Virus record (IMG/VR): IMGVR_UViG_3300031812_000012
Coordinates: 1-34,461 of that record
Source of the DNA: a virus
Length of the DNA stretch: 34,461 bases
Strand: one strand, 5' to 3'
The notes below the pieces were generated by a model. The model searched no databases. It was not told where the DNA came from and worked only from the letters and a program-made list of their open reading frames with translations. Below are positions 1,080 through 32,323 of this stretch, piece after piece. Every line of letters starts with the position of its first letter. The stretch's first letter is position 1. The position numbers were made by a program, and so were the translations under genes.

Positions 1080-1388
1080 ATGAGCAAGCAGGTTGATCAA
1101 TACGACGCCGCAATGAGAGTGTTGCGCCGGGCCGGATTTGTAAGCCCGGACGATGTCCAGGCCGCGGTGCAACGCGCAATCGTGCAATCCGAACACCCGG
1201 CCTGGGTCCGGGCCAACTACATCCTGGCAAAACGCTATAGAATCCGCCTCGATGAATGTGTCCCGAATAAGCCTATGTGGCAGCTGGTGAAGGCCATAGG
1301 CGAGCTGACGGAAGATTCTGAGCTGCAAGCCATTGCCAGGGCGGCTCTCCTCGAGGAGGTAGAGCAACATGGCCCAGGTAAGCGTTGA
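1080..1388 (+). CDS. Unknown 102-aa helical protein upstream of the primase
   Basis: This is an all-helical-looking 102-aa protein with no recognised domain. It is rich in Arg/Ala/Glu segments (YDAAMRVLRRAGF, DVQAAVQRAIVQ, LQAIARAALLEEVEQH). Its start is preceded by GAGGA near the end of the preceding gene. Its 3' end overlaps the primase-helicase gene by 20 bp, and that gene's AGGAGGT ribosome-binding site (1354-1360) lies inside it. The tight coupling suggests a partner of the primase-helicase, for example a loader or regulator, but this is inferred from position only. Confidence 0.7.
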   Translation: MSKQVDQYDAAMRVLRRAGFVSPDDVQAAVQRAIVQSEHPAWVRANYILAKRYRIRLDECVPNKPMWQLVKAIGELTEDSELQAIARAALLEEVEQHGPGKR

Positions 1389-3420
1389 TGACATATTGCC
1401 ACGTCTGCTGGGCGTGCGCAGGACTAGGTCCGGGTGGACGGCGAAATGCCCGGCCCACGACGACCAGCGCCAGAGCCTCTCGATAGGCGTTGGTGCAACT
1501 GGCAAGGTCCTGCTCAAATGCCACGCCGGCTGTTCGTTCCAAGAGATTCTAGGCGCTTTGGGCATTTCTGGCACGCCAAGCAGCAGTTGGGATGGCCTGC
1601 CTAAGGATGCCAACCGGCTTTGGGTGTACCGCTGGGCTGACGGCACACCAGCAATGGCCGTGGCTCGCTGGGATGGGCCAAATGGCAAAAAGATACGACC
1701 GTTCCGGCCGAGGAACGGCCGCTGGGAACCTGGCGCTCCAGCCAAGCGGCCATGTCTTCACTTGCAGGAGCTGCTGAAGGCTAAGGCTGATACCCCCATC
1801 TGGGTCGTGGAGGGCGAAAAGTGCGTCGACGCCTTGCGCGCCGCGGGCGCCCTCGCCACGACATCACCGGGGGGAGCCCAGGCCGCATCCAAAGCGGATT
1901 GGTCATGGGCCAAGGGCAGAGAGATTGTCCTTTGGCCCGACAACGACGAGGCCGGCCGCCGATATGCCGCAGATGTTGCACAGCTGTGCTATGAGGCCGG
2001 CGCCAAGCGTGTTCGCTGCCTCCCCGAGGGGGCGGTGCAACTACCCCCGGGTGGAGATGCAGCCGATTTGGCTACTGACCAGTTGCGTGATCTGTTGCCC
2101 ATGCTCTTGCTAGCGGCTGCCGATGTGCCCGCCCCGCAGCAGCAGCCAGCGCAGCAGACCGTTCCTGAAAAACGCAAACCAACTGACGCCGACCTTGCGC
2201 GGAGCTGGCTGGCGGTGGCAGGCCCCGCGGTCTGGTCCGTGGGTAGCTGGTACGTATGGACCGGGCGAATCTGGCAGGAACAAGCGCGAGAACAGATCGA
2301 TCAATCGATCCTGTTTCATGTGGAATCTATTTGCCGCGAGTTTGGGCTGTCGCTCGGTTCTGGCCGAATCAGGAGCGTCCGTGAGGTCGCAGAATCACTG
2401 GCCTATCGGCCCCCGGAGTGGTGGGACGAGGGGATGGGGTGGTGGCCCTGCCAAAACGCGACGATTGACCTGGAGAGGATCGAGCCCACAGAGCACCATC
2501 AAGATCACAAGTCGACCTTCTGCGCGCCCTACGCATACGACCCCAGGGCCAGGCCAGAAACCTGGCTGCGCGTCTTAATGGAAAACCTTGCCGATCAAGA
2601 GACGATTGATTTTCTTCAAGAATACGCGGGTTACTGCCTTACCGGAGATACTAGCCTCGAGCGGGCCGTTTGGCTGCACGGGCCACCCGGATCGGGGAAG
2701 TCGACGATTGTAGCGGGGTTCGAGGCGCTCTTGGGCGCAGCCTGCGTGCCCTTGGGCCTGCACGAAATTGAGAGGACCCCTTTCGCCCTGTGCAAACTGA
2801 TCGGCCGCAGGCTGGCCGTGGCTACCGAACAACCCGCCGAATTCGTTAGGTCAACCTCGCTTATTTCAGCGATCATCAGCGGCGAACCGATAATGGTCGA
2901 TCTCAAATACCGTGACCCGATTGTTCTCCGCCCGCGCGCCAAAATTTTGTGGGCATGTAACGACCTGCCGCGCACTTCCGAAGTCGCCGCAGGGATTTTC
3001 CGGCGTGTCGCCATTGTCCAATGTTGCCGGAAGGTCAGCCAGCCCGATACTACCCTTCGCAAGAAACTCGCCGCCGAGGCATCAGGTATCCTTAACTGGG
3101 CCCTGGAAGGCCTCCGAAGGCTGCGCCAAAGAGGGAATTTCTGCCTGCCCGCAGCTGTGCAGGCCACCAGCGACGAGTACAGGGAAAGCTGCGATGTGAC
3201 CGCGGCTTTTGCCGCCGAGCGTCTCATATTCGAAGAACTTGCCGAGGTCCGGGCCGCCACGCTTTATCAGGAGTACCGGCAGTGGTGTGATGAGAATGGC
3301 CACAAGCCCAAAAGCAGCACCGCTATGGCTGCGGAATGGAGGCGCCTGGGCTTGCGCCGGGACCGCGATGGGCTTGGCACATTCTACCGGGGGGCCAAGA
3401 TCAAATCGAATGTCCTCTGA
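1369..3420 (+). CDS. Primase-helicase: CHC2-like zinc finger, TOPRIM and SF3 (D5/P4-type) helicase
   Basis: This 683-aa protein combines primase and helicase. The N-terminus has a zinc-binding pattern, C27-x2-H30 (CPAHDD) and C51-x3-C55 (CHAGC), as in bacterial and phage primases. A TOPRIM domain follows, with VVEGEK (146-151) and DNDEAG (190-195), which hold the metal-binding acidic residues. After a Pro/Gln linker (about 250-262) comes a D5-like helicase with Walker A GPPGSGKST (438-446) and an SF3 motif C stretch ending in CNDLPR (about 525-535). The C-terminal 100 residues look like a D5/P4 winged-helix DNA-binding end. It should unwind DNA and lay down RNA primers at the replication fork. 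The start has a strong AGGAGGT site 8 nt upstream. It is the main replication protein here; no DNA polymerase accompanies it. Confidence 0.93.
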   Translation: MAQVSVDDILPRLLGVRRTRSGWTAKCPAHDDQRQSLSIGVGATGKVLLKCHAGCSFQEILGALGISGTPSSSWDGLPKDANRLWVYRWADGTPAMAVARWDGPNGKKIRPFRPRNGRWEPGAPAKRPCLHLQELLKAKADTPIWVVEGEKCVDALRAAGALATTSPGGAQAASKADWSWAKGREIVLWPDNDEAGRRYAADVAQLCYEAGAKRVRCLPEGAVQLPPGGDAADLATDQLRDLLPMLLLAAADVPAPQQQPAQQTVPEKRKPTDADLARSWLAVAGPAVWSVGSWYVWTGRIWQEQAREQIDQSILFHVESICREFGLSLGSGRIRSVREVAESLAYRPPEWWDEGMGWWPCQNATIDLERIEPTEHHQDHKSTFCAPYAYDPRARPETWLRVLMENLADQETIDFLQEYAGYCLTGDTSLERAVWLHGPPGSGKSTIVAGFEALLGAACVPLGLHEIERTPFALCKLIGRRLAVATEQPAEFVRSTSLISAIISGEPIMVDLKYRDPIVLRPRAKILWACNDLPRTSEVAAGIFRRVAIVQCCRKVSQPDTTLRKKLAAEASGILNWALEGLRRLRQRGNFCLPAAVQATSDEYRESCDVTAAFAAERLIFEELAEVRAATLYQEYRQWCDENGHKPKSSTAMAAEWRRLGLRRDRDGLGTFYRGAKIKSNVL

Positions 3421-3435
3421 GATCCAAGTGGAACC

Positions 3436-3813
3436 ATGAGTTGCTGTGGTCAGAAATCTCTAGGGATTGCGGCGATTAAAGTCATGCAATCTGCGGCCGG
3501 GATTGGACTAGCCCCTGAGGCGATCATCCGTGACCGCAGGCGAATTTGCGCTCGGTGCGAGCATGCACTGATCGTTAAGGTGGGCGGTCTTTCGGTACCT
3601 GCAACATGTAAGATCTGCGGCTGCATCATCAGCCTGAAGACGCGATTGGCTGCCGAGTCGTGTCCGGCCGACCCGCCTCGTTGGAACCGCTATTCTGATG
3701 CGCAGGTCGATCAGCCTGGGGCGCGCCCCGCAGCAGGCCCAGATAATAGGCAAACGCGACCTGCATCTTCTCACAATCAGCAAGGTGATCCGGCCAACGC
3801 CGGGAGCGCTTGA
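3436..3813 (+). CDS. Small Cys-rich zinc-ribbon-like protein
   Basis: This is the last gene of the rightward arm, 125 aa. Its first about 85 residues contain a Cys cluster: CC at 3-4, RICARCEH, TCKICGC and ESCP. The pattern suggests zinc binding like the short Cys-rich proteins common in phage genomes; its job is unknown. The C-terminal about 40 residues (Gln/Ala/Pro/Asn-rich, no hydrophobic pattern) are read from DNA that also encodes the end of the terminase on the other strand. The tail is probably low-complexity read-through and the conserved core probably ends near WNRYSD. The two convergent genes overlap by 185 bp. Confidence 0.65.
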   Translation: MSCCGQKSLGIAAIKVMQSAAGIGLAPEAIIRDRRRICARCEHALIVKVGGLSVPATCKICGCIISLKTRLAAESCPADPPRWNRYSDAQVDQPGARPAAGPDNRQTRPASSHNQQGDPANAGSA

Positions 3814-5635
3814 CCCAGTTGCCGTCGGACTCTCGCATTTTGCCTTCCATGTGGCGCCAGTATTCCTTGTCTGCTGCGCCCTCTGAAACGGCCCAAGTCT
3901 CCGGGGCCTTCCCGGACCGCAGCAGCTCAAGCAGATCGAGAAAATAGTCGCCGCTGAACTCGAACAGATAGTCCCCATACTTGCCCTGGTCTGCTGTGCC
4001 GTGGAAGGGGTCGTAGGCATGCAGGCGATAGGGCAGCATTTCTCCCGTCTTGGACTTCCAGCGTTTCCTCGATGGGAATCCCTTGGCAGCAAGCCACCCG
4101 TCACGCGGGAAAATCCTTGCGCCTGCGACTGGTTTATCCAACAGGCGACCGCTGCTTGGCGATTGCCAAAGCCATTTGGTTGCCCGTCGGAAACATTCGC
4201 GGTAGACCTCGGCATTTTCGCGTGCGCCATAGCCGGAGTCGACCATCACGCCTGAATTGGCCACGCCATATTTGGCCTGGATCGCAGTCAACTCTTCCCA
4301 CGTATCCGCATGGCCTTGGGCAATAAGGATGGAGTCCCCGCGATTTTCGCCGTCTGCCCGCCAGGCGCGAACGACCCACCAGAAATAAGGCCAGGACTGC
4401 TGGCAGTCGACAGTCATGAGTCGTGTCCATTTGCCCTCCTGCGTGGCCTCTGGTTTTTCGACGATGACCCGCGCCGCGGCAATGGCATCCTGGACCGCCC
4501 ATGGAAGCGCCAGATCGCTGTTGATGAAATTACGGAGGATGTCCGGGTTGGCTCGGCTGGAGAGGTACTTGATCGTCAGTTTGGCCAGGCTTGTTTCTGG
4601 GTGGCTCGCATATAAGGATGGCAGATGATAGCCGCGAATGCCTGGCACGGCCTTTCTAGTAGGCCGCCATTCGCCATGGGCGTCCATCCACAGTTTGTGC
4701 TCATCCGAAATTTTGGCACCGCAATGCGGGCATACGAAGTGGGCAGTCTCAGCCGCAATGCGGATGTCTTCTGGGTCTAGATCATCCCCAATGTCCTTCT
4801 CATTGTCCCAATGGACCCATGCCACGGGGATTTCCTGCTTGTTATCGTCCACGCGTGGCAGGATCTCGACGGTCTCGGACCAGCCGAGGACAAAATACCT
4901 GTCCTTCCGCTTCCCATCCTCTGAGCAATAGGGGCATGGCACAAAGCGCCTTCGGAGGTCCGAGCGCATCAGCCATTGCCAGATCATGCCATCTTCGATG
5001 GTCGGCGTGGACGTCTTGACCCTCATCGGCAGCGGGCAATCTTTGGTGCGCTCATCGATTAGGGCAGACGGATGCGCCTCGACATCGCCGCGGTGTACGT
5101 ACCCGTCAATTTCGTCCTGGATGGTCACGTCGCAGGGATTCCCGGCCAATTGCCTGGCGGAGCCCGTGCCAGTCCAGTCGATGATGCTTCCTGCGATAAT
5201 CTGCTGCAGGAAAGTCATATCGGACCGCCGGTATTGGGTGGGTAATAGAGCAGCAAGCTGCGGAGATGCCTGGAGCATGGGGATCCACTTGGTTCGTGCA
5301 TCATTCCGGGCTCCGCCGGGCCCATGCAAGGCAGGTTTGCACCAGAGGCAACGCATGGGATGATGGACGATGCGCCAGGCTGCTCCGATCAAGAGCGTTC
5401 GCGTTTTGCCAGTCCGGCTGCCCCAGCACAGTATCAGGTCTGAAACCTGCGGCCCCCGCCACAAATCTATGACTTCTTCCATGTACTTGCGGCCGTAGAG
5501 GCTCATCGGGCCGCTGATGCCGGGCTCGCGAAACACAATATTCTTCAGAGCCCACTGGGTGACCGTCTCGTCAGGCCACTCCTTCGCTATCTGGCTCAGC
5601 AGAGTCAGCAGCTTCTTCTCCTGGCTCGATGTCAT
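3629..5635 (-). CDS. Terminase large subunit, GpA family
   Basis: This is the phage packaging ATPase-nuclease, 668 aa from the chosen ATG. It resembles lambda GpA: an N-terminal region (SGPMSLYGRKYMEEVIDLW), a Walker A variant GSRTGKTRT near residues 70-78, a Walker B-like IQDEIDGY near 170, and two CxxC pairs typical of the family (CPYC near 235, CPHCG near 300). The C-terminal half carries the nuclease domain (MTVDCQQSWPYFWWVVRAW). It cuts concatemers and drives DNA into the prohead through the portal. The ATG at 5635 is preferred because AGGAG lies 10 nt upstream; an upstream in-frame start at 5686 would deepen the overlap with the small subunit. The extreme C-terminus is low complexity where it overlaps the convergent gene. 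It is the last gene of the leftward late operon. Confidence 0.93.
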   Translation of the reverse strand: MTSSQEKKLLTLLSQIAKEWPDETVTQWALKNIVFREPGISGPMSLYGRKYMEEVIDLWRGPQVSDLILCWGSRTGKTRTLLIGAAWRIVHHPMRCLWCKPALHGPGGARNDARTKWIPMLQASPQLAALLPTQYRRSDMTFLQQIIAGSIIDWTGTGSARQLAGNPCDVTIQDEIDGYVHRGDVEAHPSALIDERTKDCPLPMRVKTSTPTIEDGMIWQWLMRSDLRRRFVPCPYCSEDGKRKDRYFVLGWSETVEILPRVDDNKQEIPVAWVHWDNEKDIGDDLDPEDIRIAAETAHFVCPHCGAKISDEHKLWMDAHGEWRPTRKAVPGIRGYHLPSLYASHPETSLAKLTIKYLSSRANPDILRNFINSDLALPWAVQDAIAAARVIVEKPEATQEGKWTRLMTVDCQQSWPYFWWVVRAWRADGENRGDSILIAQGHADTWEELTAIQAKYGVANSGVMVDSGYGARENAEVYRECFRRATKWLWQSPSSGRLLDKPVAGARIFPRDGWLAAKGFPSRKRWKSKTGEMLPYRLHAYDPFHGTADQGKYGDYLFEFSGDYFLDLLELLRSGKAPETWAVSEGAADKEYWRHMEGKMRESDGNWVKRSRRWPDHLADCEKMQVAFAYYLGLLRGAPQADRPAHQNSGSNEAGRPDTTRQPIASSG

Positions 5636-6152
5636 CGTCCGCGTTCTCCTGGCCTTTGGTCGGTGGAGCCTGCAAGCCTGCCTCAATCACGCGGCGCAAG
5701 GCGGACACCATGGCCTCGAGGGCTTGTTTACCGACGGCTGGCGCCTCTGGATTCACGTGACCAGCCCAAGCGCCCGGTGCTGATTGTAGCCATTGCGTGA
5801 TTGGCTGGACCAGCCGCAACCCGATCCATCGCTCCACATCCGGCCATCGAACCCATTCCTCATTCGCCAACTCCAAGCGCTTCTCTAAGAGAAGCCTGTG
5901 CGCGCGCTCCTTCGCTGCCCGCTCCTGCGTTAAATCCAGGACGACGGTTGCATCCCGCCTGGCGCCATACGTGTCAAACCACCACGTCAGGAAGCCGCGC
6001 AGATCAACCCGGCTGTGCCGGATGGCCGGGCACCCTTCCCGCTTGGCCATCGTGAAGATCTGCCTTGGGATTCCTGTTGCCGCGCTTGCGTCCGCGATGG
6101 TCCGGAAGATCAGAGGAATTGAGGATGGAGAGGATTTGCCCGGTTGGCTCAT
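5571..6152 (-). CDS. Terminase small subunit, Nu1-like
   Basis: This likely DNA-recognition subunit of terminase is 193 aa. The N-terminus has a helix-turn-helix-like segment (TIADASAATGIPRQIFTMAK) followed by a DLRGFLTWWF stretch. A charged helix (TQERAAKERAHRLLLEKRLE) leads into the EWVRWPDVERW motif seen in Nu1-type subunits. The C-terminus is very acidic (DDDIEPGEEAADSAEPDSE), a plausible contact for the large subunit. It lies directly upstream of GpA, with a 65-bp overlap. I chose ATG 6152; an in-frame TTG at 6194 would add 14 residues, and neither has a clear ribosome-binding site. Assignment rests on the HTH-like start and the position. Confidence 0.8.
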   Translation of the reverse strand: MSQPGKSSPSSIPLIFRTIADASAATGIPRQIFTMAKREGCPAIRHSRVDLRGFLTWWFDTYGARRDATVVLDLTQERAAKERAHRLLLEKRLELANEEWVRWPDVERWIGLRLVQPITQWLQSAPGAWAGHVNPEAPAVGKQALEAMVSALRRVIEAGLQAPPTKGQENADDDIEPGEEAADSAEPDSEGVA

Positions 6153-19326: not shown

Positions 19327-20472
19327 TTACGTAGCAGCATCTCGGATGATTACGCCTGCCGAGGCGTCGCCGAGCGCAGCGCCGAAGCAAACCTCCCAGG
19401 TCATCCAAGTGGTGCGTGTGGCGGGCGAATACCACCGCCACTGCTCCACAGACAGTCCGATGTTTTCAACGGTCAAAACGGTGGAACTTGGGATGTTCAC
19501 GTCGCGCATGGGCTCCAGCGGCAGGCCCGCCGCCACAACAATGGCCTGCGGGTTGCAGCAGAAACCGGCCAGAGCCGTGGCTCCGCCAGTCCACAGTGTC
19601 TGTGGGAATACACCGTCCCATCCCGGATAGGTCCAGCCTTCAAGCGGGTTGAAGCTCTGCAAGTTGTCGGGCAGCAATCGCTTGAAGTAATCCTGACGCA
19701 GGATGGCGTACCGCCGTGGCGCGCGGACCAACAGCGCCCAGAGGTCTTTCATGCGCTCCGCAGTAAAGTTTGCCGACTGGATCGCGACGTTGTTTGAGCC
19801 GGTGAAGTTCGTGGTGGTCATCACGGTGATGACCCTCGACATGATTGCATCCGCGAATTCGGCGGCCTTAATCTCCAGGAACCACTCCAGGTCATACCCG
19901 CTCAGCACTTCAGACCAGTCGAAGTGCAGGAACGTGACGATATGGTCCGGGGTCACCGGCCGGTTCGAGATCGTGGCCGCGATGCCAGAGGCGGGCTCGA
20001 AATTCGTCGGGTTGGACTGCGTGGTCCCCTGCGTGGTCGCAATTGGAACCTGAATGGTCCGCCTGCCGATCCGGCCCTGGGTGACAGTCCTGGCGAAGGC
20101 TTGCAACGGCGCAAGCCGATGCTGCAACACGGTCAGCGCGACGGAGCTGACGATCGCAGGCATCAACGCGCCAGTGGGTGAGGTATTGTAGGTGTTGGCC
20201 GCCAACGGCTCAAAGAGCGGGAATGCCTGGCGCAGGTGATTGAATTCCCGCACCAGGAATTTGCGGCGCTCCTGTGCCGACTTGCCACGCAACAGGCTCT
20301 CAAGGGTTTGGTCCTCGGCCCGAATGTTCGGGCTTGGCAAAGGCCCCGGCGGGGGCTGTTGCTGCCCGTGCGGTTGAGGTTGCGGCGGCGCTGCGGGCTG
20401 TGGCTGCGGCGCCGCCTGCCCGCCCTGAGTCTTGTCCGCGGCCGGTGCCGCGGGCTTGGTTTGGTCCTCCAT
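19327..20472 (-). CDS. Nested start for scaffold-major capsid product (381 aa)
   Basis: Inside the protease-capsid gene an in-frame ATG (codon 224, product beginning MEDQTKPAAPAADK) is preceded by AAGGAGG at 20481-20487 with exactly 8 nt between. This is as good a translation start as any in the window. The product would be the linker plus the capsid domain without protease. It would solve the stoichiometry problem of a fusion, since hundreds of capsid subunits but few proteases are needed. Lambda C/Nu3 uses the same trick for scaffold. Use of this start is inference from the ribosome-binding site. Confidence 0.65.
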   Translation of the reverse strand: MEDQTKPAAPAADKTQGGQAAPQPQPAAPPQPQPHGQQQPPPGPLPSPNIRAEDQTLESLLRGKSAQERRKFLVREFNHLRQAFPLFEPLAANTYNTSPTGALMPAIVSSVALTVLQHRLAPLQAFARTVTQGRIGRRTIQVPIATTQGTTQSNPTNFEPASGIAATISNRPVTPDHIVTFLHFDWSEVLSGYDLEWFLEIKAAEFADAIMSRVITVMTTTNFTGSNNVAIQSANFTAERMKDLWALLVRAPRRYAILRQDYFKRLLPDNLQSFNPLEGWTYPGWDGVFPQTLWTGGATALAGFCCNPQAIVVAAGLPLEPMRDVNIPSSTVLTVENIGLSVEQWRWYSPATRTTWMTWEVCFGAALGDASAGVIIRDAAT

Positions 20473-21141
20473 AAGCGTTTCCTCCTTCTTCATTTTGCTT
20501 GTCTTGTCCGGTGGGTCACTCTTTGCGCCCGCGGCAGCGGCCCCACCATGCCGCGCCGCAAACTCTTCCCAGCGCCGGAAATGCATTGCCTTCGCCGCCT
20601 CGGCCCACATCTTCCATGGCGGTACGGCGGCCATAGCGCCGGCGCCGGCGTCCTCGATTCGATGCACAAACCCGAATTCTTTGGCCTCCTCAGGCGTAAA
20701 CCATGCCTCTTCTTGCATCATCTTTCGGATTGTTTCCTGATCCTTGCCTGTGGTGGAGGCGTAAATGTTGGCCATGGTCCGCGATAGGCCGTCCAAGGCC
20801 TCAGCACTCCGCAGGTGCTCCTCTGCATTGCCAACCGTAAACCCCCAAGCGTCATGGATCATGATGGAAGAGGCCGGACGCGCAACAATTTCGCGCCCGG
20901 CAGCCGCAATCAAAGATGCAATGGACCACGCGGCGCCCTCGATGTAAACCGTCGGTTTCCGTTCTCGAAGCGCATTGTAAATCCCAAAGCCTTCCGTGAC
21001 GGATCCGCCGGGAGAATTGATGAGAACAGTTAATGGCTCATCTGGCGGGATGCGCTCCAGAAAATCACGCACCGCTGTGTAGCTAATCGCGTCGCCGAAG
21101 AAATCGGTGCCGATCGGTTTATCAATCCTCAGTGTCGCCAT
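19327..21141 (-). CDS. Fused ClpP-type prohead protease, scaffold-like linker and major capsid protein
   Basis: This 604-aa protein joins three units. Residues 1-170 are an S14 ClpP-like protease: NSPGGSV (44-50), the GAAWSIAS nucleophile region (Ser near 73), and MIHDAWG with the catalytic His (near 95). Residues about 170-310 are charged and then Pro/Gln-rich (APQPQPAAPPQPQPHGQQQ), like scaffold/delta domains. From about 310 on is a capsid-type sequence (NTYNTSPTGALMPAIVSSVA to the end). In lambda-like phages the protease matures the prohead by cutting scaffold and itself. The start has AGGAGGT 5 nt upstream and overlaps the portal gene by 20 bp. An internal start at 20472 probably also makes free scaffold-capsid protein. 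Confidence 0.9.
   Translation of the reverse strand: MATLRIDKPIGTDFFGDAISYTAVRDFLERIPPDEPLTVLINSPGGSVTEGFGIYNALRERKPTVYIEGAAWSIASLIAAAGREIVARPASSIMIHDAWGFTVGNAEEHLRSAEALDGLSRTMANIYASTTGKDQETIRKMMQEEAWFTPEEAKEFGFVHRIEDAGAGAMAAVPPWKMWAEAAKAMHFRRWEEFAARHGGAAAAGAKSDPPDKTSKMKKEETLMEDQTKPAAPAADKTQGGQAAPQPQPAAPPQPQPHGQQQPPPGPLPSPNIRAEDQTLESLLRGKSAQERRKFLVREFNHLRQAFPLFEPLAANTYNTSPTGALMPAIVSSVALTVLQHRLAPLQAFARTVTQGRIGRRTIQVPIATTQGTTQSNPTNFEPASGIAATISNRPVTPDHIVTFLHFDWSEVLSGYDLEWFLEIKAAEFADAIMSRVITVMTTTNFTGSNNVAIQSANFTAERMKDLWALLVRAPRRYAILRQDYFKRLLPDNLQSFNPLEGWTYPGWDGVFPQTLWTGGATALAGFCCNPQAIVVAAGLPLEPMRDVNIPSSTVLTVENIGLSVEQWRWYSPATRTTWMTWEVCFGAALGDASAGVIIRDAAT
20481..20487 (-). promoter_or_regulatory. 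Internal ribosome-binding site for the capsid product
   Basis: AAGGAGG on the minus strand lies 8 nt before the in-frame ATG at 20470-20472. It sits in the middle of a long gene, where a perfect site with ideal spacing is unlikely by chance and decides the second start. Confidence 0.65.
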
Positions 21142-22621
21142 TCGTCACCTCCTGCCCGTCTCGAGCCCTAACCGCGCTGTTGGTGCTCTCTGGGACTAAT
21201 GTCTGCGAAAGCCAGCGCACGTCAAGGCCAAATTGTTCAGCCAACTGCCGCATGTAAGCGATTTGCTCCGCCCGCTTTCTAAGTTCTTGCCGCCAGTCCA
21301 GGCCCATTTGCCCATAGATAAGTTCCCAGTGCGAAGCGCCATGCTTGAGCTCCTCAAGCATCGCCACCGTGGAGCGGCCCAGGTCAACATCAATTTGGCG
21401 CGGCGCGCGAATGGAAACGTTCGACCATGTTGCCGGGGCCGGTGGCAGGCCCGAGTTGTTGGCCATAATCACCCCGAGCGCATGGGCGTAGATTTTGCGC
21501 GTCGCGCGAATGAACAGTTCCGAGGCCGAAATCATGGAACTGCGCGCGGCCGCCAGGTCTGCGCGGGCCACAGTGCCCTGAACGCTGTAGGGCGCCACCA
21601 GCTGGCGAGGAATCCCCACCCCCACGCAAATCTTGTTGATCAGATAATCCCAGAACGCACGCTGTTGTTCGGTCGGCCGCTGCGGCTGAATTACGGTAAC
21701 ATCTTCGCCGGGTAGAAGCGCAACTGCGCGGCCGCCAAGGGCATCGCTGTAATGGCGGACCCGGTCCGCGATTTCTTGCCCGGCCGATTCGATCTGCTCC
21801 AGCCCAAGGTCGGCGCGACGCACAAGCTCGGCGCCAAATTCGCCGGTGTGCAGCTTCCAGATCGTCGATTTCTCGGCGGCGTCCGCGTGGGCCCGCATCT
21901 CGTACATCTCCAGGTCCATGAGACAGTGCATGTCCCGAAGTACGGGCGTGAGGACCGGCATGCCTCGCAATTGATCCGAGTATGAAGGATCCATGATGTG
22001 GATGATCTGCGAAGCCGGGACCCTGCGCGTGCCGCCGCGATCATCAGTCAGGACGTGATAGGCGATCGGCTGCGTTGTCAGCGGGTCAATTTCAATGCCG
22101 TCGATGATTTTTTTCCTCTGCTGCGGCGCAAGGTTCGTGGGCTGGACGATCCTATGCGTTTCTAGGACCTGCACCGCGGGACGGCCCTCGAGCTCTGTCA
22201 GGTAGATGAAAACTTCGCCGTCGAAAAACCATCTCCAGACCATCAGCGCCTGCGCGGCTCCCCAGCCATTCTGTCCGGCGGGCCCGAGGACCAACTGATC
22301 CTTGATCTCTTCCCATGCGGTCGTTGCCCACTGGTCCCACGGCTCATAACCGCTGGCAGGCACGAGGGCCAGCCCCCGCGGGCCAACGGTATAGTCCACG
22401 TAGATCGCGGCAAGCCGGTTCGCCAGGGCCGAGTGCCGCTCGAAATACCTCGAAACCGCAATGTTTTGTGCCCGGTCAGCCCGAGCCCCTAGGCTTTCCC
22501 AGCCGCCCGGCGCTTCGAGAGAGAGCTGCGAAAGGCCGCGGTCTGCGACAAGATACCTGCCATAGAGCCGTCGCTCACCGTTTCGGCCGCGCGTCAGCAG
22601 CCTCTTAAGTAAACCGAGCAT
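21122..22621 (-). CDS. Portal protein, lambda gpB type
   Basis: This 499-aa portal protein forms the ring at the capsid vertex through which DNA enters and leaves. It shows the lambda-family layout: an N-terminal arm (RADRAQNIAVSRYFERHSALANRLAAIYVDYTVG), a WRWFFDGEVFIYL stretch, ETHRI and IDGIEIDPLTTQPIAYHVL in the middle, and IIHIMDPSYSDQLRGMPVLTPVL. The C-terminal half has the long helical region with DAAEKSTIW and NKICVGVGIPRQLVAPYSVQ. The length is close to that of gpB. The gene overlaps the upstream small gene by 17 bp and the protease by 20 bp, as expected in a portal-protease-capsid block. Confidence 0.92.
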   Translation of the reverse strand: MLGLLKRLLTRGRNGERRLYGRYLVADRGLSQLSLEAPGGWESLGARADRAQNIAVSRYFERHSALANRLAAIYVDYTVGPRGLALVPASGYEPWDQWATTAWEEIKDQLVLGPAGQNGWGAAQALMVWRWFFDGEVFIYLTELEGRPAVQVLETHRIVQPTNLAPQQRKKIIDGIEIDPLTTQPIAYHVLTDDRGGTRRVPASQIIHIMDPSYSDQLRGMPVLTPVLRDMHCLMDLEMYEMRAHADAAEKSTIWKLHTGEFGAELVRRADLGLEQIESAGQEIADRVRHYSDALGGRAVALLPGEDVTVIQPQRPTEQQRAFWDYLINKICVGVGIPRQLVAPYSVQGTVARADLAAARSSMISASELFIRATRKIYAHALGVIMANNSGLPPAPATWSNVSIRAPRQIDVDLGRSTVAMLEELKHGASHWELIYGQMGLDWRQELRKRAEQIAYMRQLAEQFGLDVRWLSQTLVPESTNSAVRARDGQEVTNGDTED

Positions 22622-22973
22622 TTTGGGCGTCGACGAGGTAAGATTTCCGGCTTACACGAGCCAAGACCAGCATCTTGCGGTAGCGCTCTTCTTCACTCTC
22701 GGACGGGTTCGCGGCCGCAAGATCGTCGTACAATTCAACGAGCGAACCCCAGGCCCGAGCAATTTCGGCGCTCGTCACTGCGTGGGCCGCGGCCCCGGTC
22801 CAGTACACCGTGGACAGGGCTCCGTTGGACACAGATTGAATCGACCCGCTCGCGTGGATGGCCGCGGCCGCATCCTCTTGAGACCGCAACACGTCCCTCA
22901 AGGGCTTCCCCTCGGCAACGGCCATGGTCCAAGCCCCTTCCAACATCCGCCTGCGGTCTGTACCTGTAATCAC
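22605..22973 (-). CDS. First gene of the late operon; small head protein upstream of the portal
   Basis: This 122-aa helical protein starts at GTG 22973, with AGGGTGG just upstream, and overlaps the portal gene by 17 bp. It has helices around RRMLEGAWTMAVAEGKPLRDVL and IARAWGSLVELYDDLAAANP, and a basic C-terminus (RVSRKSYLVDAQNARFT). In lambda the slot before the portal gene is held by the head-tail joining protein gpW, but this protein is longer and I see no clear sequence link. It is the promoter-proximal gene of the leftward late operon. Confidence 0.65.
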   Translation of the reverse strand: MITGTDRRRMLEGAWTMAVAEGKPLRDVLRSQEDAAAAIHASGSIQSVSNGALSTVYWTGAAAHAVTSAEIARAWGSLVELYDDLAAANPSESEEERYRKMLVLARVSRKSYLVDAQNARFT

Positions 22974-23249
22974 GCCACCACCCTACTGTAATGATAAGCC
23001 CAGTCAAGCCTAATCCCGCGCAAAATTATGTGCCCGCTCAACCCGCCCAGGATTCGATCTGCCTGGCTTTTTAATTGCGGCGCGGCTCCCCCACTTCGCC
23101 AGAGCGAAAAGCCGGCCGTAGGCTGGTTTAAAGCAATCTGGCGCCAGGCCAGAACAGGACCAGCCGAGCCGCCGCAGCCATAGCGACATAGGCAACCAAT
23201 TGTCAACCTCGGCCGCAAAGGCAGTTGACAATTCGGCATCCGAAATTTG

Positions 23250-23335
23250 CGTAAGTCGTTGAGCATCAACGCTTGTGGCAGGTTATGGCAGGTTTGTGGC
23301 AGGTTGCCACCCGCGTAAGTCATTGAGCATCAACG
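23250..23335. repeat. Duplicated block with CGTTGA-GCA-TCAACG palindrome
   Basis: The segment gcgtaagtcRttgagcatc followed by aacg occurs at 23250-23272 and again at 23313-23335, 63 bp apart, differing at one base. Each is followed by TGGCAGGTT units. The first copy contains a perfect palindrome, CGTTGA GCA TCAACG (23257-23271); in the second one arm base is changed (ATTGA). The six half-turn spacing (63 bp) would put a bound dimer on the same face of DNA. It is likely a protein-binding site tied to the iteron array. Confidence 0.7.
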
Positions 23336-23367
23336 GTTATGGCAGGTTGTGGCAAGTATGGCAGGTT
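23276..23367 (+). repeat. Forward iteron cluster, six TGGCAGGTT units
   Basis: Units start at 23276, 23286, 23297, 23340, 23350 (variant TGGCAAGTA) and 23359. Spacing is mostly 10-11 bp, one helical turn, as for protein-binding iterons. They form two triplets, each following a copy of the palindrome block. Confidence 0.8.
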
Positions 23368-23447
23368 TTTCGAAAACTTTTTTATACGCGCGCCTCTTAT
23401 CACAAGGTGCTAGTGCTCTGTTTTAATTTTTCTACATACAGTTTTAT
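23368..23447. other. AT-rich core between opposed iteron clusters; candidate origin
   Basis: This 80-bp segment contains TTTTTCGAAAAC, TTTTTTATAC and TTTTAATTTTTCTAC tracts and is much more AT-rich than its surroundings. Iterons beside an easily melted tract are the classical layout of a replication origin. The phage has its own primase-helicase, so an origin is needed. A divergent promoter region is the alternative. Confidence 0.45.
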
Positions 23448-23539
23448 AACCTGCCAAACCTGCCATAACCTGCCATAAAGCCTAAGAATCAAGGGGTTAC
23501 AAAGAAACACAACCTGCCATAACCTGCCACAACTTGCCA
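23448..23539 (-). repeat. Reverse iteron cluster, six AACCTGCCA units
   Basis: The complement of the forward unit occurs at 23448, 23457, 23467, 23511, 23521 and 23531 (variant AACTTGCCA). Together with the forward cluster it makes a near mirror image, six and six, around the AT-rich core. Confidence 0.8.
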
Positions 23540-23754
23540 TTGCATGGAAATTTGAAAGCAGAATGCGATTTTTTCCACACAGGCTTGAATTTTTAAGGTT
23601 CGATAACGTTAACAGTCAGCACAGACTTGCACTTTCTTCGCGTCTGCCAGCCGCGAAAAGGCGTTTTCGGCTAATACAAGTGCCGCGTTGTATAAGGCGG
23701 CCTGATTTAAAGGCAAAATTTGGGCCTTGAAGGGCCCTTAAACATTTTTCCAAA

Positions 23755-23781
23755 AACCTGCCAAACCTGCCAAACCTGCCA
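23755..23781 (-). repeat. Outlying reverse iterons, three contiguous AACCTGCCA units
   Basis: Three exact 9-bp units at 23755, 23764 and 23773 follow each other without spacers, about 215 bp right of the main cluster. The 9-bp period differs from the 10-11 bp spacing elsewhere. Confidence 0.8.
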
Positions 23782-24421
23782 TGAATGGCTGCCAGAAGCA
23801 TGTTGCTGGCGGTGCCTTGCCGCCTGTAGGCGGTAAGGCTGCACCAAGCGTTGCGATGGCGGGGCCAGGACCTCTATTGGGCCTATCGAGGCACGTTGAC
23901 CGCACTGCGAGAGCAAGTCGCCGCCGCCGCACCACATGTAAGCATGGTCCGTGCCAACAGCATCCTGTAACGAGCTAAAACTTGCCAAAAAAGCGGCTTT
24001 TGCGTTTTGAACGGCCTCGGCGCCCCGCCGGTGCGGCCTGTTTCCGCCAAGAGATTCCTTTCCCGCGCTGTTGTCGGACTTCTTTACGCGGCCGGAGGGA
24101 TTGGGAAGCTTTTCCGACGGTTTTGGGGCTGGTGTCGGCTGGTCTTACACGTTGGGCTCGGAATGTAAAGTCCTCGAGACTGACGACTTTGCGGAGCGCT
24201 GGATTGATCCCAAGCGGACGTTTTATCGGGCTCCAAGCTTGCTAGTAAACCGGTCGACCTGGATCGGCCTTGCGGCGCTGCGCGGGGCCCGCTCCTGGCG
24301 GATGTTAGACGCAAGCATGCTGCCCATTGCGCGCGCTAATCACATGTACCAACACCCTCTGGATCACGCGGGCTAATACACCGAGCGCGATTAGCTGACT
24401 CAATGCGTCGCGGCAGAGCGC

Positions 24422-25445: not shown

Positions 25446-25660
25446 AGTACCTGGACATCCCTTGGGACCTGGGCTGTCGGTCGCGGATCGAGTGACAGCG
25501 CAAAGGGTACATTTTTTTCGGCTGTCCGCTTCACACCGTCGTGTGAAAAGCAGACCACGACACTCGGAAAGACGATCCCCACCTCGACACCTGTCGGCTC
25601 GAGTGTGATGTCGGAACCGAACATTCGTTCGGTTGGAGGTGAACATTTGAGGAGTTTCAT
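25442..25660 (-). CDS. Small paralog A of the five-member family
   Basis: This 72-aa protein is the first of the small genes, coupled to the vWA gene by ATGA (25657-25660). It shows G15-x2-I-x-L-x4-V (GSDITLEPTGV), FSHDG42, a 10-residue gap, FAL, nine residues and VP (QVPRDVQVL). The middle is strongly strand-like (EVGIVFPSVVVCF). It starts MKL like all its sisters, and the junction CTATGAAA is shared with three of the others. No function is recognised. The direct link to vWA translation suggests matched expression. Confidence 0.8.
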   Translation of the reverse strand: MKLLKCSPPTERMFGSDITLEPTGVEVGIVFPSVVVCFSHDGVKRTAEKNVPFALSLDPRPTAQVPRDVQVL

Positions 25661-26760
25661 AGCTCGATGATCACTTTGGGTGTACCCGCGGGGACTGATT
25701 GTTCTGAGTAATCTCCCACGAGCACGGCTATCCAGGGGACATGGATCTGGTTCAAGACCTCCGGATCCGAGAGCCGGAAGTCGGAAATGACCACGATCGC
25801 GGCCGCATCCCGCACAAGTTGGAGCGCGGGACCGATCCGGGTATCGGACGAGTCGATCGACGGAAGGTCGCGGCCGCGGACTACCGCTGCACCTCCGGCG
25901 AACACGACTACTTCGAGGTCAGCCGCGCGCGCAAGACGATGAGCAAGCCCGTGCAGCGTGGACCAGTGTTTCTGGAGTGAACCAGACACGTCGACTAACA
26001 CAGCTACTTTGATCCGCGGTTCGCGGACCACACCGCGGGTAAGCGGGGTGCGTCCCGGTCGCTTGTAATTGCGGGTGTAACTGAACATCCCCGACCGACC
26101 GGATCGGTACGCACGCTGGGAGAGAACCGCAGCGAGACTGCGAACACGCGCTGCGAGCCCGCGCGGATCGGTTGGGGGGAGCGGCTTCTTAGCCGACTCC
26201 ATCCGCTCGATCTGTTCCCGCGCGCGCTCGACGAATTCACGGTGGACTTTCCGCAGTTCATCGAGCGAGCAGCTTGGATCGTGCCGGAGCTCGTCGGTCT
26301 GATCGGACCGTTGCTGCTGATCGGACTGCTGATCCGAGTGCTGCTGTTGGTCAGACTTACCCCGGCCGATGACCGGGACCAGCTCCGCGCGACTGGGAGT
26401 GTAGTTCTTATCCCAGCCGAACAGATCGAGGGTAATCGGTCTACCCTTCGGTCCGTGCAGGCTTTGGCTAGCGCGGAGCAGCTTTTCGCGCGGTAGGCTG
26501 GCGTTAATGACAGCGTCAGCAACCACGTTGAGTTGCTTGGGTGTGAGCCCGAGTTCGAGCGCGCGGCCGGGGAGACAGTCTCCCGAGAGCGCGTGTTGTA
26601 ACTCGTGCCGGAGAAGCACCACGCGGGTATCCTCCGGCAGTCGGGGATCGAGATTGATTCGATACCCCGACCTGGTCAACTCACAGTAACACTCACCTTG
26701 CTCCCAGGTGAGTCGCACCCCGAGCCGGTCGAGCAAGCGAGACCATTCAGGAGGGATCAT
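25657..26760 (-). CDS. Metallopeptidase-like/vWA fusion protein, MoxR partner
   Basis: This 367-aa protein resembles the DUF2201-type group. Residues 1-120 hold a zincin-like site, H52-E-L-Q-H56, followed by NVVADAVINASL (78-89), whose Asp/Asn residues are typical of this domain. Residues 135-156 are a Ser-Asp-Gln repeat linker. A charged helical region (160-245) follows, then a von Willebrand A domain (248-367) with a complete MIDAS: D257-V-S259-G-S261, T307 and D327. vWA proteins paired with MoxR ATPases bind a target through the metal site and let the ATPase remodel or load it. Both sites look intact. The gene overlaps MoxR by ATGA (26757-26760). It is the likely adaptor between the ATPase and the five small proteins downstream. 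Confidence 0.88.
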   Translation of the reverse strand: MIPPEWSRLLDRLGVRLTWEQGECYCELTRSGYRINLDPRLPEDTRVVLLRHELQHALSGDCLPGRALELGLTPKQLNVVADAVINASLPREKLLRASQSLHGPKGRPITLDLFGWDKNYTPSRAELVPVIGRGKSDQQQHSDQQSDQQQRSDQTDELRHDPSCSLDELRKVHREFVERAREQIERMESAKKPLPPTDPRGLAARVRSLAAVLSQRAYRSGRSGMFSYTRNYKRPGRTPLTRGVVREPRIKVAVLVDVSGSLQKHWSTLHGLAHRLARAADLEVVVFAGGAAVVRGRDLPSIDSSDTRIGPALQLVRDAAAIVVISDFRLSDPEVLNQIHVPWIAVLVGDYSEQSVPAGTPKVIIEL

Positions 26761-27728: not shown

Positions 27729-27764
27729 AGTGGTGGTGTGTTTCACCTCAATTCGTCGAGCAGA

Positions 27765-27790
27765 GTTAGTCGACTTAGTAGTTAGTCGAC
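27765..27790. promoter_or_regulatory. Operator-like direct repeat upstream of MoxR
   Basis: GTTAGTCGAC occurs at 27765-27774 and 27781-27790, 16 bp apart, each containing the palindrome GTCGAC. It lies 37-62 bp upstream of the MoxR ATG, where a leftward promoter should be. It is likely a regulator site; the regulator is not identified. Confidence 0.5.
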
Positions 27791-27933
27791 CATTCTTACT
27801 CGTCCAGGGAGTCCCACGAGGAGGGTGAGGTGATACTCCCCTTCCCACGACTTACTCCTCCGGGTGTTGCCGCCCACCCGCCCCGGTTCCACCCCGGGTG
27901 TGGTAAGTCGTAAGCCGCCCGCTCTGGAGCTGT

Positions 27934-27945: not shown

Positions 27946-28182
27946 GGAGAGCATCGGTGAGACCGCACGCGGTGCGCCGCGGAATCCACTCGGTCCGCGG
28001 ACCGGGGTGGGCTTTCTGCGGTCGCCCACTGCCGCCGGCCGTCAGGCTGGCCGCCCGCCACCGGGAACGCGGGGTCCCGGCTCCCAGGGATGCACCCAGG
28101 GGGATACGAGGGATGGGGAATCCCTCGCTCCACCGACATGGTCTCAGATCCACCGATCCGATCAAATTCCTGGGATCCCCCT

Positions 28183-28196
28183 CGCGCGCGCGCGCG
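28183..28196. repeat. (CG)7 tract followed by TATATTC
   Basis: A 14-bp alternating CG run is directly followed by TATATTCTTTCTTG. It is a potential Z-DNA/structural element next to a melt-prone stretch. Confidence 0.7.
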
Positions 28197-30018: not shown

Positions 30019-31124
30019 GACCAACGCTTACTGCCAGCCAGACGGGCCTGGCCCTTCTCTGCCCCGGCTCAATACAGATGCGTGCCGAGGCCATGCAGGC
30101 GCGCGCCCTGCCCGAGGCCACGCCTGAGCAGTCCCGCGGGACAGCCATCCACGCCGCCATCGAGGCTCGCTGCCCTGATAAACTGGACAATACGGCTGAC
30201 ACAGAGGCCGTGCGGTGGGCGCTTGAGACCACTCAAGCCATTGTGGGCGATGCCATCGATGGAAAGCTGGAACGCGAAACCCGGGTATACTTCCGGAAAA
30301 CGTCGCAGGGCATCGCGCTTTCCTACGATGCCTCAGACGAAGACCTGTTTTCCGCCAGGCCGGACCTTTGGTGCCGGACTGCAGACGGCATAAAGATCAT
30401 CGACTACAAAACCGGCCGGTCAGATGATCCTTTGTTCTCCTGGTTCGCGCGCGCCCAGATTGTCGCCATGTCCGCATTCTGGTCGGCGGCGACGATGCAG
30501 CCGGCGATCGGCTACCTCCTCTATGTGGACGAGCAGAGGGTTTGGAAAAGAGCCACCTTACATCCTGCGGAGGCGGAGCTGACTGTTGCCCACATCCTGG
30601 CTGCCACGCATCGGACAGATTTCTTCCAACCTGGCCACTGGTGCCAGGCTTGTCCGGGGCGGCATGTCTGCCCACATCGGGCGGCCCTGATTGAGGCTAT
30701 GCCGCCGAAATCGGAATTACCGGCTCAACCTGCGAAAGCGTACGCCAGGCTCCTCCTCATTCGCCGAGTGATTGAGGATATGCTGGAGCAATTACGCCCT
30801 GCCGTAGTTGAAACCAGCGACGAGGACCTTGCGCAAGCCGGGCTGAAGCGCATCAAGAGAAGCCGCGTCGAGTTGGGCAGGCCGACGCCGGAATTCCTGG
30901 CGCGGCTATCCCTCCTCTATGAGCAGGATTGGACCTCGGCCATATCGGTTTCAATGCCTGCGTTGCGTGCGCTTTTCCGCAAGGAGCACAAGGCGCCGGA
31001 CCTCGCTATTGCTCAACTGGCCGAACAGACCGGGGTCGAAGTGAGGATTTCCGAAACCGATGGAATCGAGCTTGATCGGCGCATTCGTCTGCCGATCGAT
31101 CAGTTAGCCAAGGAACAGCCATGA
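30015..31124 (+). CDS. PD-(D/E)XK exonuclease with Cas4/AddB-like Fe-S cysteines
   Basis: This 369-aa nuclease resembles the RecB/Cas4 and DUF2800 groups. Motifs are RGTAIHAAIEAR (H46), RPD with D117, D130-Y-K132 (IIDYKTGR) and a downstream Gln in the FARAQIVAMSAF helix. A cysteine near the N-terminus (C16, LLCPGS) pairs with C210-x2-C213-x5-C219 (WCQACPGRHVC), the four-cysteine pattern that binds a 4Fe-4S cluster in Cas4 and AddB. It is expected to degrade DNA from ends to expose single strands for annealing by the upstream protein. It is coupled by ATGA to both neighbours (30015-30018 and 31121-31124). The C-terminal 130 residues are a helical extension. It is not a CRISPR protein here: no cas1/cas2 or array is present. 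Confidence 0.85.
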   Translation: MRPTLTASQTGLALLCPGSIQMRAEAMQARALPEATPEQSRGTAIHAAIEARCPDKLDNTADTEAVRWALETTQAIVGDAIDGKLERETRVYFRKTSQGIALSYDASDEDLFSARPDLWCRTADGIKIIDYKTGRSDDPLFSWFARAQIVAMSAFWSAATMQPAIGYLLYVDEQRVWKRATLHPAEAELTVAHILAATHRTDFFQPGHWCQACPGRHVCPHRAALIEAMPPKSELPAQPAKAYARLLLIRRVIEDMLEQLRPAVVETSDEDLAQAGLKRIKRSRVELGRPTPEFLARLSLLYEQDWTSAISVSMPALRALFRKEHKAPDLAIAQLAEQTGVEVRISETDGIELDRRIRLPIDQLAKEQP

Positions 31125-32323
31125 AACTGACAATTGAAACCAAGACATTACGAGCGGCGCTATCAGTTGTGGCGCCGGCGGTGCCAAGAATATGCCTTAT
31201 TCCCGCGCTGTTATGCGCGCGCCTCCGGTTGTTGCCGAAGCAAAGCGGCGACCAGGATTATCCGGAAGTACTAGAGATCTGCTGCACAAGCCTGGACGCA
31301 CGCCTTACGGCCGAAATTCCATGCAGGAGCCAAGGCAAGGTGAAACGGGATTTGCTTCTTCCCATGAAGACGACTCTTGCACTTGTCAAGCTGTTCGATC
31401 AGCGGGAAACGGAGATATCCAGGTTAAGCGAAACGGGGATAAACATCGCCGCCGGCGACTGTGAATACTGCCTTCATACTCCAGATCCGGCGGATTTCCC
31501 AGAAGCAATAGGAAGCGCCGATTCGCGTAGCCCAGAGGGCGCGGGAGCTAAACCTAAGCCCGACCTATCCGCAAAATTCACCGGAAACGAACTCGCTGCT
31601 ATGTTGCGCGGGATGCGTTATGCCGCATCGGACGGCTCGGATAATCGATACGTATTAGAGTCCGTTTTGTTCGAATTTAACGATGACTCCTTGCGCCTTG
31701 TATCAACTGACGGCAGGCGCTTAGCGATTATTGAGCGCAAGCTAGATGAACCCGCCAGGGGTGCCGCCCAATACGTGGTTCCCGTGGCCGCCGTGGACCT
31801 GATCACTCGAGCGCTTGCGGCGCAGGCCCGGGAAAGCGGCGCTGTTGAGGTTCGATTAACGAATGATCATATCACAATGACATGCAGCGAGTGCCACAGT
31901 CTCGAAAGCCTTGAGCTCAAGGCCAAGCTCATAGACAGCACATATCCGAATTATCGTCAGGTGATCCAGGGCTTGGAATCAAAGGCACGGGTTAGCGTCG
32001 ATCGAAAGGATTTTCTGCGGGCAGTGCAACGCATTTCATTGATTGCACAGGATCCGTCCGCCTTTGGCATGGTTCTAAGTTTTGATGAGACCATGGTTAT
32101 CCGGTCCGTCGACGGACGCGCAATCGAACGCGTAACGCCCCTGTCGTTCTCTGGGGAAAATCTGGAAGCGCGGCTGAACCCGCGCTACGTGCTAGACTTC
32201 TTGAATGCGGCCGACGATGAAACGATCCACCTGCAAGTTGGCTGGGGCGACCAGCCGATTTGCCTCACTGACGGCGATAATGGCAAAGTCTGTTACATCG
32301 CGCCGATGAGGAGCGTTGGCTGA
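31121..32323 (+). CDS. dnaN: DNA polymerase III beta sliding clamp
   Basis: This 400-aa protein is a bacterial-type beta clamp. It shows the three-domain repeat: MKLTIETKTLRAALSVVAP at the start, the middle domain (LAAMLRGMRYAASDGSDNRYVLESVLFE and LVSTDGRRLAIIE), the third domain (SVDRKDFLRAVQRISLIAQ, MVIRSVDG) and the conserved end VCYIAPMRSVG. Clamps encircle DNA and tether the polymerase. The first domain has extra residues around 35-60 and 115-140 relative to the usual about 370 aa. No phage polymerase is encoded, so the clamp probably serves host Pol III or other phage proteins. It is ATGA-coupled to the exonuclease. Confidence 0.92.
   Translation: MKLTIETKTLRAALSVVAPAVPRICLIPALLCARLRLLPKQSGDQDYPEVLEICCTSLDARLTAEIPCRSQGKVKRDLLLPMKTTLALVKLFDQRETEISRLSETGINIAAGDCEYCLHTPDPADFPEAIGSADSRSPEGAGAKPKPDLSAKFTGNELAAMLRGMRYAASDGSDNRYVLESVLFEFNDDSLRLVSTDGRRLAIIERKLDEPARGAAQYVVPVAAVDLITRALAAQARESGAVEVRLTNDHITMTCSECHSLESLELKAKLIDSTYPNYRQVIQGLESKARVSVDRKDFLRAVQRISLIAQDPSAFGMVLSFDETMVIRSVDGRAIERVTPLSFSGENLEARLNPRYVLDFLNAADDETIHLQVGWGDQPICLTDGDNGKVCYIAPMRSVG

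What the first reader, a model, noticed from the sequence alone, without database searches (positions are those of the whole stretch)
23250..23781. Mirror-image array of 15 TGGCAGGTT iterons around an AT-rich core
Six forward and six reverse 9-bp units flank an 80-bp AT-rich segment, with three more reverse units further right. A palindrome block is duplicated 63 bp apart on the left. The size, helical spacing and symmetry point to a replication origin or a master switch for the late operon just to the left. No gene for the binding protein is obvious; an unknown early protein such as those at 485-1388 is a candidate.
Basis: partly seen in the sequence, partly recalled or inferred. Interest (0 to 1): 0.7.

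Follow-up and report, generated by a model that had tools for sequence, protein, structure and literature searches.

The report
Phage replication origin with mirrored iterons
This phage carries a large, almost perfectly mirror-symmetric cluster of short repeats around the easiest-to-melt stretch of its genome, very probably the place where its own primase-helicase starts copying its DNA; the design was described for parasitic phage islands, but here it sits in a complete phage and far from the gene of the protein thought to bind it.

Summary
The array is real. It has 13 exact and 2 variant TGGCAGGTT units (plus a lone variant at 23979), as two triplets on each side of an 80-bp AT-rich core. 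All six mirror pairs share one dyad (23407.5-23408), and the core is the least stable 60-100 bp of the whole genome. In the only close relative (G001) every unit is unchanged (0/144 bases) while the core differs at 12.5%. The cumulative GC-skew minimum lies 0.3 kb away. Best explanation: the replication origin of a circularising tailed phage, fired by its own P4-family (D5/SaPI5-Rep-like) primase-helicase (1369-3420), not by an unknown early protein. Supporting rule found here: in viral contigs with this helicase, mirrored repeats around a 40-90 bp core directly follow the helicase stop codon (24/31, versus 0/189 other gene ends), and their sequence co-varies with the helicase C-terminus. The two-iteron-sets-around-AT-rich-core plan is known from PICI/SaPI origins and said to be unique to them. 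Here it is in a full phage, enlarged to six plus six, with an extra cluster, and 12 kb from its rep gene. A second role as late-operon switch is untested. No binding or replication was measured.

The parts
23276..23305 (+). left arm, outer triplet of iterons (23276-23284, 23286-23294, 23297-23305)
   Evidence: exact TGGCAGGTT x3; identical in G001
23340..23367 (+). left arm, inner triplet (23340-23348, 23350-23358 variant TGGCAAGTA, 23359-23367)
   Evidence: 64/64/62 bp from the outer triplet
23249..23272 (.). palindrome block copy 1 (CGTTGA-GCA-TCAACG)
   Evidence: the repeat finder D4; 1 mismatch in G001
23313..23336 (.). palindrome block copy 2, 64 bp from copy 1
   Evidence: unchanged in G001
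23368..23447 (.). AT-rich core, presumed duplex-unwinding element, dyad at 23407.5
   Evidence: 66% AT vs 41%; least stable 60-, 80- and 100-bp segments of the whole genome start at 23394, 23373 and 23410; 12.5% diverged from G001, where the core is also the weakest segment
23448..23475 (-). right arm, inner triplet (23448, 23457, 23467)
   Evidence: exact TGGCAGGTT x3 on - strand
23511..23539 (-). right arm, outer triplet (23511, 23521, 23531 variant TGGCAAGTT)
   Evidence: 63-64 bp from inner triplet
23755..23781 (-). third iteron cluster, three tandem 9-bp units
   Evidence: 0/27 changes in G001; overlaps a weak leftward promoter-like site 23773-23744 that is no more than chance
23979..23987 (-). 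lone variant unit TGGCAAGTT
   Evidence: conserved in G001
23487..23499 (+). perfect IHF consensus AATCAA-N4-TTA between the right-arm triplets
   Evidence: only match in the window; the fixed letters are kept in G001 while the N4 changed
23571..23579 (+). DnaA-box-like TTTTCCACA (TTWTNCACA)
   Evidence: one of two in the window; conserved in G001; could be chance
23540..23890 (.). highly conserved non-coding stretch (3 changes in 351 bp)
   Evidence: 0.9% divergence vs 7.5% and 9.0% in flanking non-coding DNA
23197..23233 (.). inverted repeat AATTGTCAACC ... GTTGACAATT, possible operator between array and late operon
   Evidence: arms largely kept, 13-bp centre 23% diverged in G001
1369..3420 (+). 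P4-family primase-helicase (Toprim primase, D5_N/SF3 helicase, C-terminal winged helix 595-678): proposed initiator
   Evidence: TIGR01613 172.7 bits, cut-off 108.7; PF08706 and PF19263; SaPI5 primase-helicase 7ola E 1e-21; model
31121..32323 (+). phage DNA polymerase sliding clamp (DnaN-like)
   Evidence: phrog_947 E 1e-44; TIGR00663 E 2e-29 but below its curated cut-off
21122..22621 (-). portal protein, near the start of the leftward late operon downstream of the array
   Evidence: PF05136 E 2e-36
3629..5686 (-). terminase large subunit, far end of the late operon
   Evidence: phrog_15 E 8e-60

Best explanation
The array is the replication origin of a circularising tailed phage. The phage's own P4-family primase-helicase (gene 1369-3420) binds the iterons through its C-terminal winged helix. 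Six forward and six reverse sites load two helicase assemblies, plausibly two hexamers, facing each other across the core. They melt the 80-bp AT-rich core, the weakest duplex of the genome, load onto the two strands and drive bidirectional theta replication with self-made primers, the phage-encoded clamp and presumably the host DNA polymerase III; IHF may help fold the right arm. The third cluster (23755-23781) would be an accessory or copy-control/regulatory site. Shown here: the anatomy, symmetry, weak core, conservation, GC-skew minimum, family membership of the helicase, the rule linking such helicases to mirror arrays, and co-variation of repeats with the helicase C-terminus in relatives. 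Inferred: binding by this helicase, melting, two-hexamer loading, direction and mode of replication.
For: Dyad shared by all six pairs, and core = least stable segment of the genome, also in G001. 0/144 changes in 16 iterons vs 10/80 in the core, p = 3.5e-5. Cumulative GC-skew minimum at 24064 with amplitude exceeding 99.6% of block permutations; G001 minimum 0.8 kb from its array. P4-family primase-helicase in the genome, like the SaPI5 primase-helicase, with a predicted C-terminal winged helix. Mirror arms directly after the stop codon of homologous helicases: 24/31 vs 0/189 other gene ends, p = 4e-26; 29/36 vs 28/912 tiles. Repeat sequence co-varies with helicase C-terminus given helicase core, partial Mantel r 0.70, p < 0.0005. 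Annotated origin of Lactobacillus phage A2 shows forward iterons, AT-rich core and reverse iterons after the same kind of primase; phi105 alike. [quoted passage not shown] SaPI Rep and Cch2 read iterons with the C-terminus (PMC7581432).
Against: The array is not next to its helicase gene: about 11.9 kb away the short way round, while nothing mirror-like follows the helicase gene itself (13/20 arm identity, background), unlike 24/31 relatives. An HMM of the cores of those relatives does not hit this core significantly, so kinship of the DNA element itself is not shown. The window's helicase is only about 30% identical to the helicases used for the rule. The GC-skew signal is weak (third-codon-position skew is inconsistent) and its maximum coincides with the convergent gene junction. 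Only one close relative exists in the collections, so conservation rests on one comparison. Nothing was measured.
Confidence: 0.83

Rival explanations
1. Origin, but bound by another protein: a separate phage initiator such as one of the unidentified early proteins, or a host protein. The P4-family enzyme would then only be loaded as the replicative helicase.
For: The array is detached from the helicase gene, and three unidentified early ORFs (485-1388) precede it with no family match.
Against: P4-family helicases of related phages lie next to mirror arrays and their C-terminus co-varies with the repeats; SaPI Rep and Cch2 bind iterons themselves (PMC7581432). No separate initiator family was found among the window proteins scanned.
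Confidence: 0.1
2. A master switch for the late operon: a regulator binds the array upstream of the portal operon and turns late transcription on or off, with no origin function.
For: Position directly upstream of the leftward late operon; a conserved TTGACAATT inverted repeat between array and operon; a promoter-like site overlapping the third cluster.
Against: The promoter-like site is no more than chance (1 found, 0.9 expected). No array copy at other operon starts. A dyad centred exactly on the genome's weakest duplex and a GC-skew minimum are not needed for a switch.
Confidence: 0.05
3. Both: origin and late-operon regulator in one, so that the replication initiator (or passage of the fork) controls late transcription, possibly through the third cluster. 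(Overlaps with the best explanation; it adds a role.)
For: Location, the third cluster and the conserved 23540-23890 non-coding stretch. In phage P4 the origin also lies between transcription units (annotation).
Against: No transcription data; no clear promoter found.
Confidence: 0.2
4. A partition or incompatibility site of a phage-plasmid bound by a ParB-like protein.
For: Iteron arrays also occur at such sites (general knowledge).
Against: No ParA- or ParB-like protein among the window proteins scanned; the AT-rich dyad core is not typical of them.
Confidence: 0.02

Closest known systems
PICI / SaPI replication origins (Gram-negative PICI such as EcCICFT073; staphylococcal islands)
   Same: [quoted passage not shown] primase-helicase of the P4/D5 type in the same replicon (PMC6092414, PMC7581432).
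   Different: PICI origins lie immediately 3' of rep; here the array is about 12 kb away, upstream of the late operon of a complete tailed phage, with 6+6 units in 64-bp-spaced triplets, plus a third cluster and palindromes.
Phage P4 ori and crr
   Same: P4-family primase-helicase (alpha); iterons in more than one cluster; one cluster far from the alpha gene.
   Different: P4 ori repeats are mixed in orientation (RRR-F-RR) and P4 has a cluster (crr) next to alpha; here nothing lies next to the helicase gene and the main array is a perfect mirror.
Lactobacillus phage A2 origin and Bacillus phage phi105 post-primase region
   Same: Forward iterons, AT-rich core (82-83% AT), reverse iterons; homologous primase.
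   Different: Directly downstream of the primase; different iteron sequence; less regular spacing.
Post-helicase mirror arrays of AcaML1-like and many environmental phages
   Same: Tandem iterons, 40-90 bp core, inverted iterons; homologous helicase.
   Different: Only two or three units per arm, core with alternating CG/CA tract, 4-106 nt after the helicase stop; core HMM does not detect the window's core.

Membership tests
P4-family (D5-type) primase-helicase, gene 1369-3420 | curated family score | tested here: met
   TIGR01613 172.7 bits vs cut-off 108.7; PF08706 31.1 vs 22.4 and PF19263 41.6 vs 27.6
P4-family (D5-type) primase-helicase, gene 1369-3420 | C-terminal DNA-binding (winged-helix) domain | tested here: met
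   AlphaFold2 model residues 595-678, helices and wing strands, block pLDDT mostly 70-90; fold predicted, DNA binding not tested
PICI/SaPI-type origin | two iteron sets in mirror orientation flanking an AT-rich region | tested here: met
PICI/SaPI-type origin | located immediately 3' of the rep/primase gene | tested here: not met
   array 11.9 kb from the gene; no mirror arms after the stop at 3420 (13/20)
PICI/SaPI-type origin | bound by cognate Rep and sufficient with it for replication | not testable with these tools
   needs gel shift and plasmid assay
PICI (the element itself) | satellite lacking most virion genes, driven by a helper phage | tested here: not met
   portal, head protease, terminase large subunit and tail-related genes present
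Phage P4 ori/crr system | second iteron cluster (crr) next to the alpha gene | tested here: not met
   no TGGCAGGTT cluster near 1369-3420
Replication origin (general) | cumulative GC-skew minimum at the site | tested here: met
   minimum 24064 on the closed circle, permutation p 0.004; G001 0.8 kb off; weak amplitude
Replication origin (general) | local duplex weakness at the initiation site | tested here: met
   least stable 60-, 80- and 100-bp segments of the genome, same in G001

The most novel reading that the evidence does not exclude
The mirror-iteron origin, reported as unique to PICIs, is the general origin type of P4-family self-loading primase-helicases in complete phages. In this lineage it has been cut loose from the initiator gene and enlarged in front of the late operon, so that the initiator also times late transcription: a replication-coupled late switch through the third cluster.
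Probability: 0.17. Interest if true: 0.72.

Novelty: new variant of a known kind. Interest (0 to 1): 0.52.

Why it matters
It gives a precise, testable origin (core, sites and probable initiator) for an uncultivated phage with only one close relative in the collections searched. It also shows that the two-iteron-sets-around-a-weak-core plan, described as shared by no known bacterial replicon other than PICIs (PMC6092414), accompanies P4-family helicases in many complete or partial phages. That offers a way to locate origins in such phages from sequence alone, and a set of naturally varied repeat / C-terminus pairs from which the DNA-reading code of these self-loading helicases could be worked out.

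Tried and rejected
Nucleotide search of the array region in annotated plasmids and phages: no match. TGGCAGGTT arrays in other IMG/VR contigs: several look like short-period tandem repeats or scattered coding repeats; genes around them were not examined and none was used as evidence. Rfam: no RNA family. HMM of relatives' cores against the window: best hit is the (CG)n block at 28161-28201 (E 1.1) and the array core ranks among the noise, so I dropped the idea, suggested by a shared TATACGCGC, that the cores are homologous. First mirror scans (exact or near-exact 8-10-mers) were weakly sensitive: 5/79 vs 13/1255 and 4/28 vs 10/654 after removing redundancy; arm-based scoring, chosen after seeing those arrays, showed the effect clearly. 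ORF 22970-23323, overlapping the left arm, is not a conserved gene: G001 has a 1-nt indel at about 23089. Salinibacter phage M8CR30-2 and AcaML1 were found as leads by eye and then included in the systematic test. Finding further close relatives through primase, portal, terminase and protease genes gave only G001. The original SaPIbov1 origin papers are not held in the library.

Full report
WHAT IS THERE. The window is a circular phage genome: its first and last 127 bases are identical, so the true circle is 34,334 bp. It encodes terminase (3629-5686 -), portal (21122-22621 -), head protease (19327-21141 -), tail-related proteins, an exonuclease, a RusA-like resolvase and a DnaN-like clamp. 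The reported array is confirmed. Thirteen exact TGGCAGGTT units lie in 23276-23781 and nowhere else; matches with up to one mismatch exceed all 100 shuffles; two variant units complete the fifteen and a lone variant lies at 23979. Each arm is two triplets 62-64 bp apart with 9-11 bp between units. The six mirror pairs all centre on 23407.5-23408, and the least stable 60-, 80- and 100-bp stretches of the whole genome fall on or overlap that core.

SELECTION. One close relative exists in the collections searched, G001 (IMGVR_UViG_3300032356_000153, 35,034 bp). Over the array, all 144 bases of 16 iterons are identical, including the degenerate ones, while the core has 10 changes in 80 and the upstream non-coding DNA 7.5% (iterons vs core p = 3.5e-5). 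The core of G001 is nevertheless again the weakest segment of its genome: composition is kept, sequence is not. This is what a melting element between fixed protein sites should look like. The non-coding 23540-23890, which includes the third cluster, is also strongly conserved (3 changes in 351 bp). A perfect IHF consensus at 23487 keeps its fixed letters while two of its four free letters changed.

SKEW. The cumulative GC-skew minimum of the closed circle is at 24064, within 0.3 kb of the array, and the maximum at about 3.67 kb; the amplitude exceeds 99.6% of block permutations. In G001 the minimum is 0.8 kb from the array. The signal is modest and third-codon-position skew is inconsistent, so I treat it as supporting only.

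THE BINDING PROTEIN. Gene 1369-3420 encodes a P4-family primase-helicase: TIGR01613 well above its curated cut-off, D5_N and DUF5906 in Pfam, phrog_6088 E 2e-95. Sequence and fold searches link it to the SaPI5 primase-helicase 7ola and the hexameric D5/E5/AsfvPrimPol enzymes. Its model ends in a winged helix, residues 595-678 (mean pLDDT of the whole model 73). [quoted passage not shown] Six plus six sites in mirror orientation fit that picture, but binding here is inferred.

A GENERAL TEST. If the array belongs to this helicase, other phages with such helicases should carry mirror arrays. I fetched 80 viral loci with homologous helicases and asked how often 20-nt inverted arms separated by 40-90 nt lie just after the helicase stop codon. 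With loci thinned at 85% DNA identity: 29/36 against 28/912 control tiles. Against the first 200 nt after other long ORFs of the same contigs: 24/31 versus 0/189, p = 4e-26. Gene ends are a fair control because both sample gene junctions. The arms are tandem 8-10 bp units such as CTGACGGAT, GGTGACCGAA or CTGACGCAG. Across 66 loci the arm sequence co-varies with the helicase C-terminus after removing the effect of the helicase core (partial Mantel r 0.70, p < 0.0005), and the C-terminus diverges about twice as fast as the core. Permutation does not fully remove shared ancestry, and the set is enriched in one clade; thinning to 11 loci at 75% identity still gives 6/11 vs 15/347 (p = 7e-6). Further examples are the annotated origin of Lactobacillus phage A2 (forward ACGGGAG units, AT-rich core, reverse units, directly after the primase), phi105, and Salinibacter phage M8CR30-2.

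LIMITS. The window's array is not after its helicase gene; the 500 nt there are at background. Its core is not detectably homologous to those of the relatives, and its helicase is only about 30% identical to theirs. So membership in the PICI/SaPI-type origin class fails on position, while the claim 'it works like one' stands on anatomy, selection and helicase family. Phage P4 is a precedent for a distal origin: its ori lies about 2.3 kb from the alpha gene and its crr beside it (annotation).

NOVELTY. [quoted passage not shown] Here the plan occurs in a complete phage, larger, more symmetric and detached from rep; and the survey indicates that it is common with P4-family helicases. That makes this a new variant of a known kind. 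I found no paper describing the general rule in the held library, which is not proof that none exists.

Noticed in passing
window 28150-28220: About 70 bp of non-coding DNA with a (CG)n tract, nearly identical in G001 inside otherwise strongly diverged DNA; a possible promoter, attachment, packaging or second cis-acting site.
   Followed up: partly
window 25657-27848: A MoxR-like AAA ATPase (26757-27848) next to a protein with a weak VWA/CoxE-like match (25657-26760): a chaperone-type pair of unknown role in a phage.
   Followed up: no
window 31121-32323: Phage-encoded DnaN-like sliding clamp; Salinibacter phage M8CR30-2 carries a clamp directly before its P4-family primase.
   Followed up: no
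window 14898-19097: A 1399-aa protein with almost no family match in the late operon, whose gene is partly far more diverged from G001 (85%) than its neighbours (97%); possibly a tail or receptor-binding protein.
   Followed up: no
window 33840-34461 and 1-452: A cytosine-methyltransferase-like gene appears to run across the arbitrary start of the record (read by eye).
   Followed up: no
L037 13700-13815, L058, L060, L087 and others, directly after the helicase stop: The cores of the relatives' mirror arrays share an alternating purine-pyrimidine tract (TTTACGCGCGTGCGCGC...), as if it were a second common origin element.
   Followed up: partly
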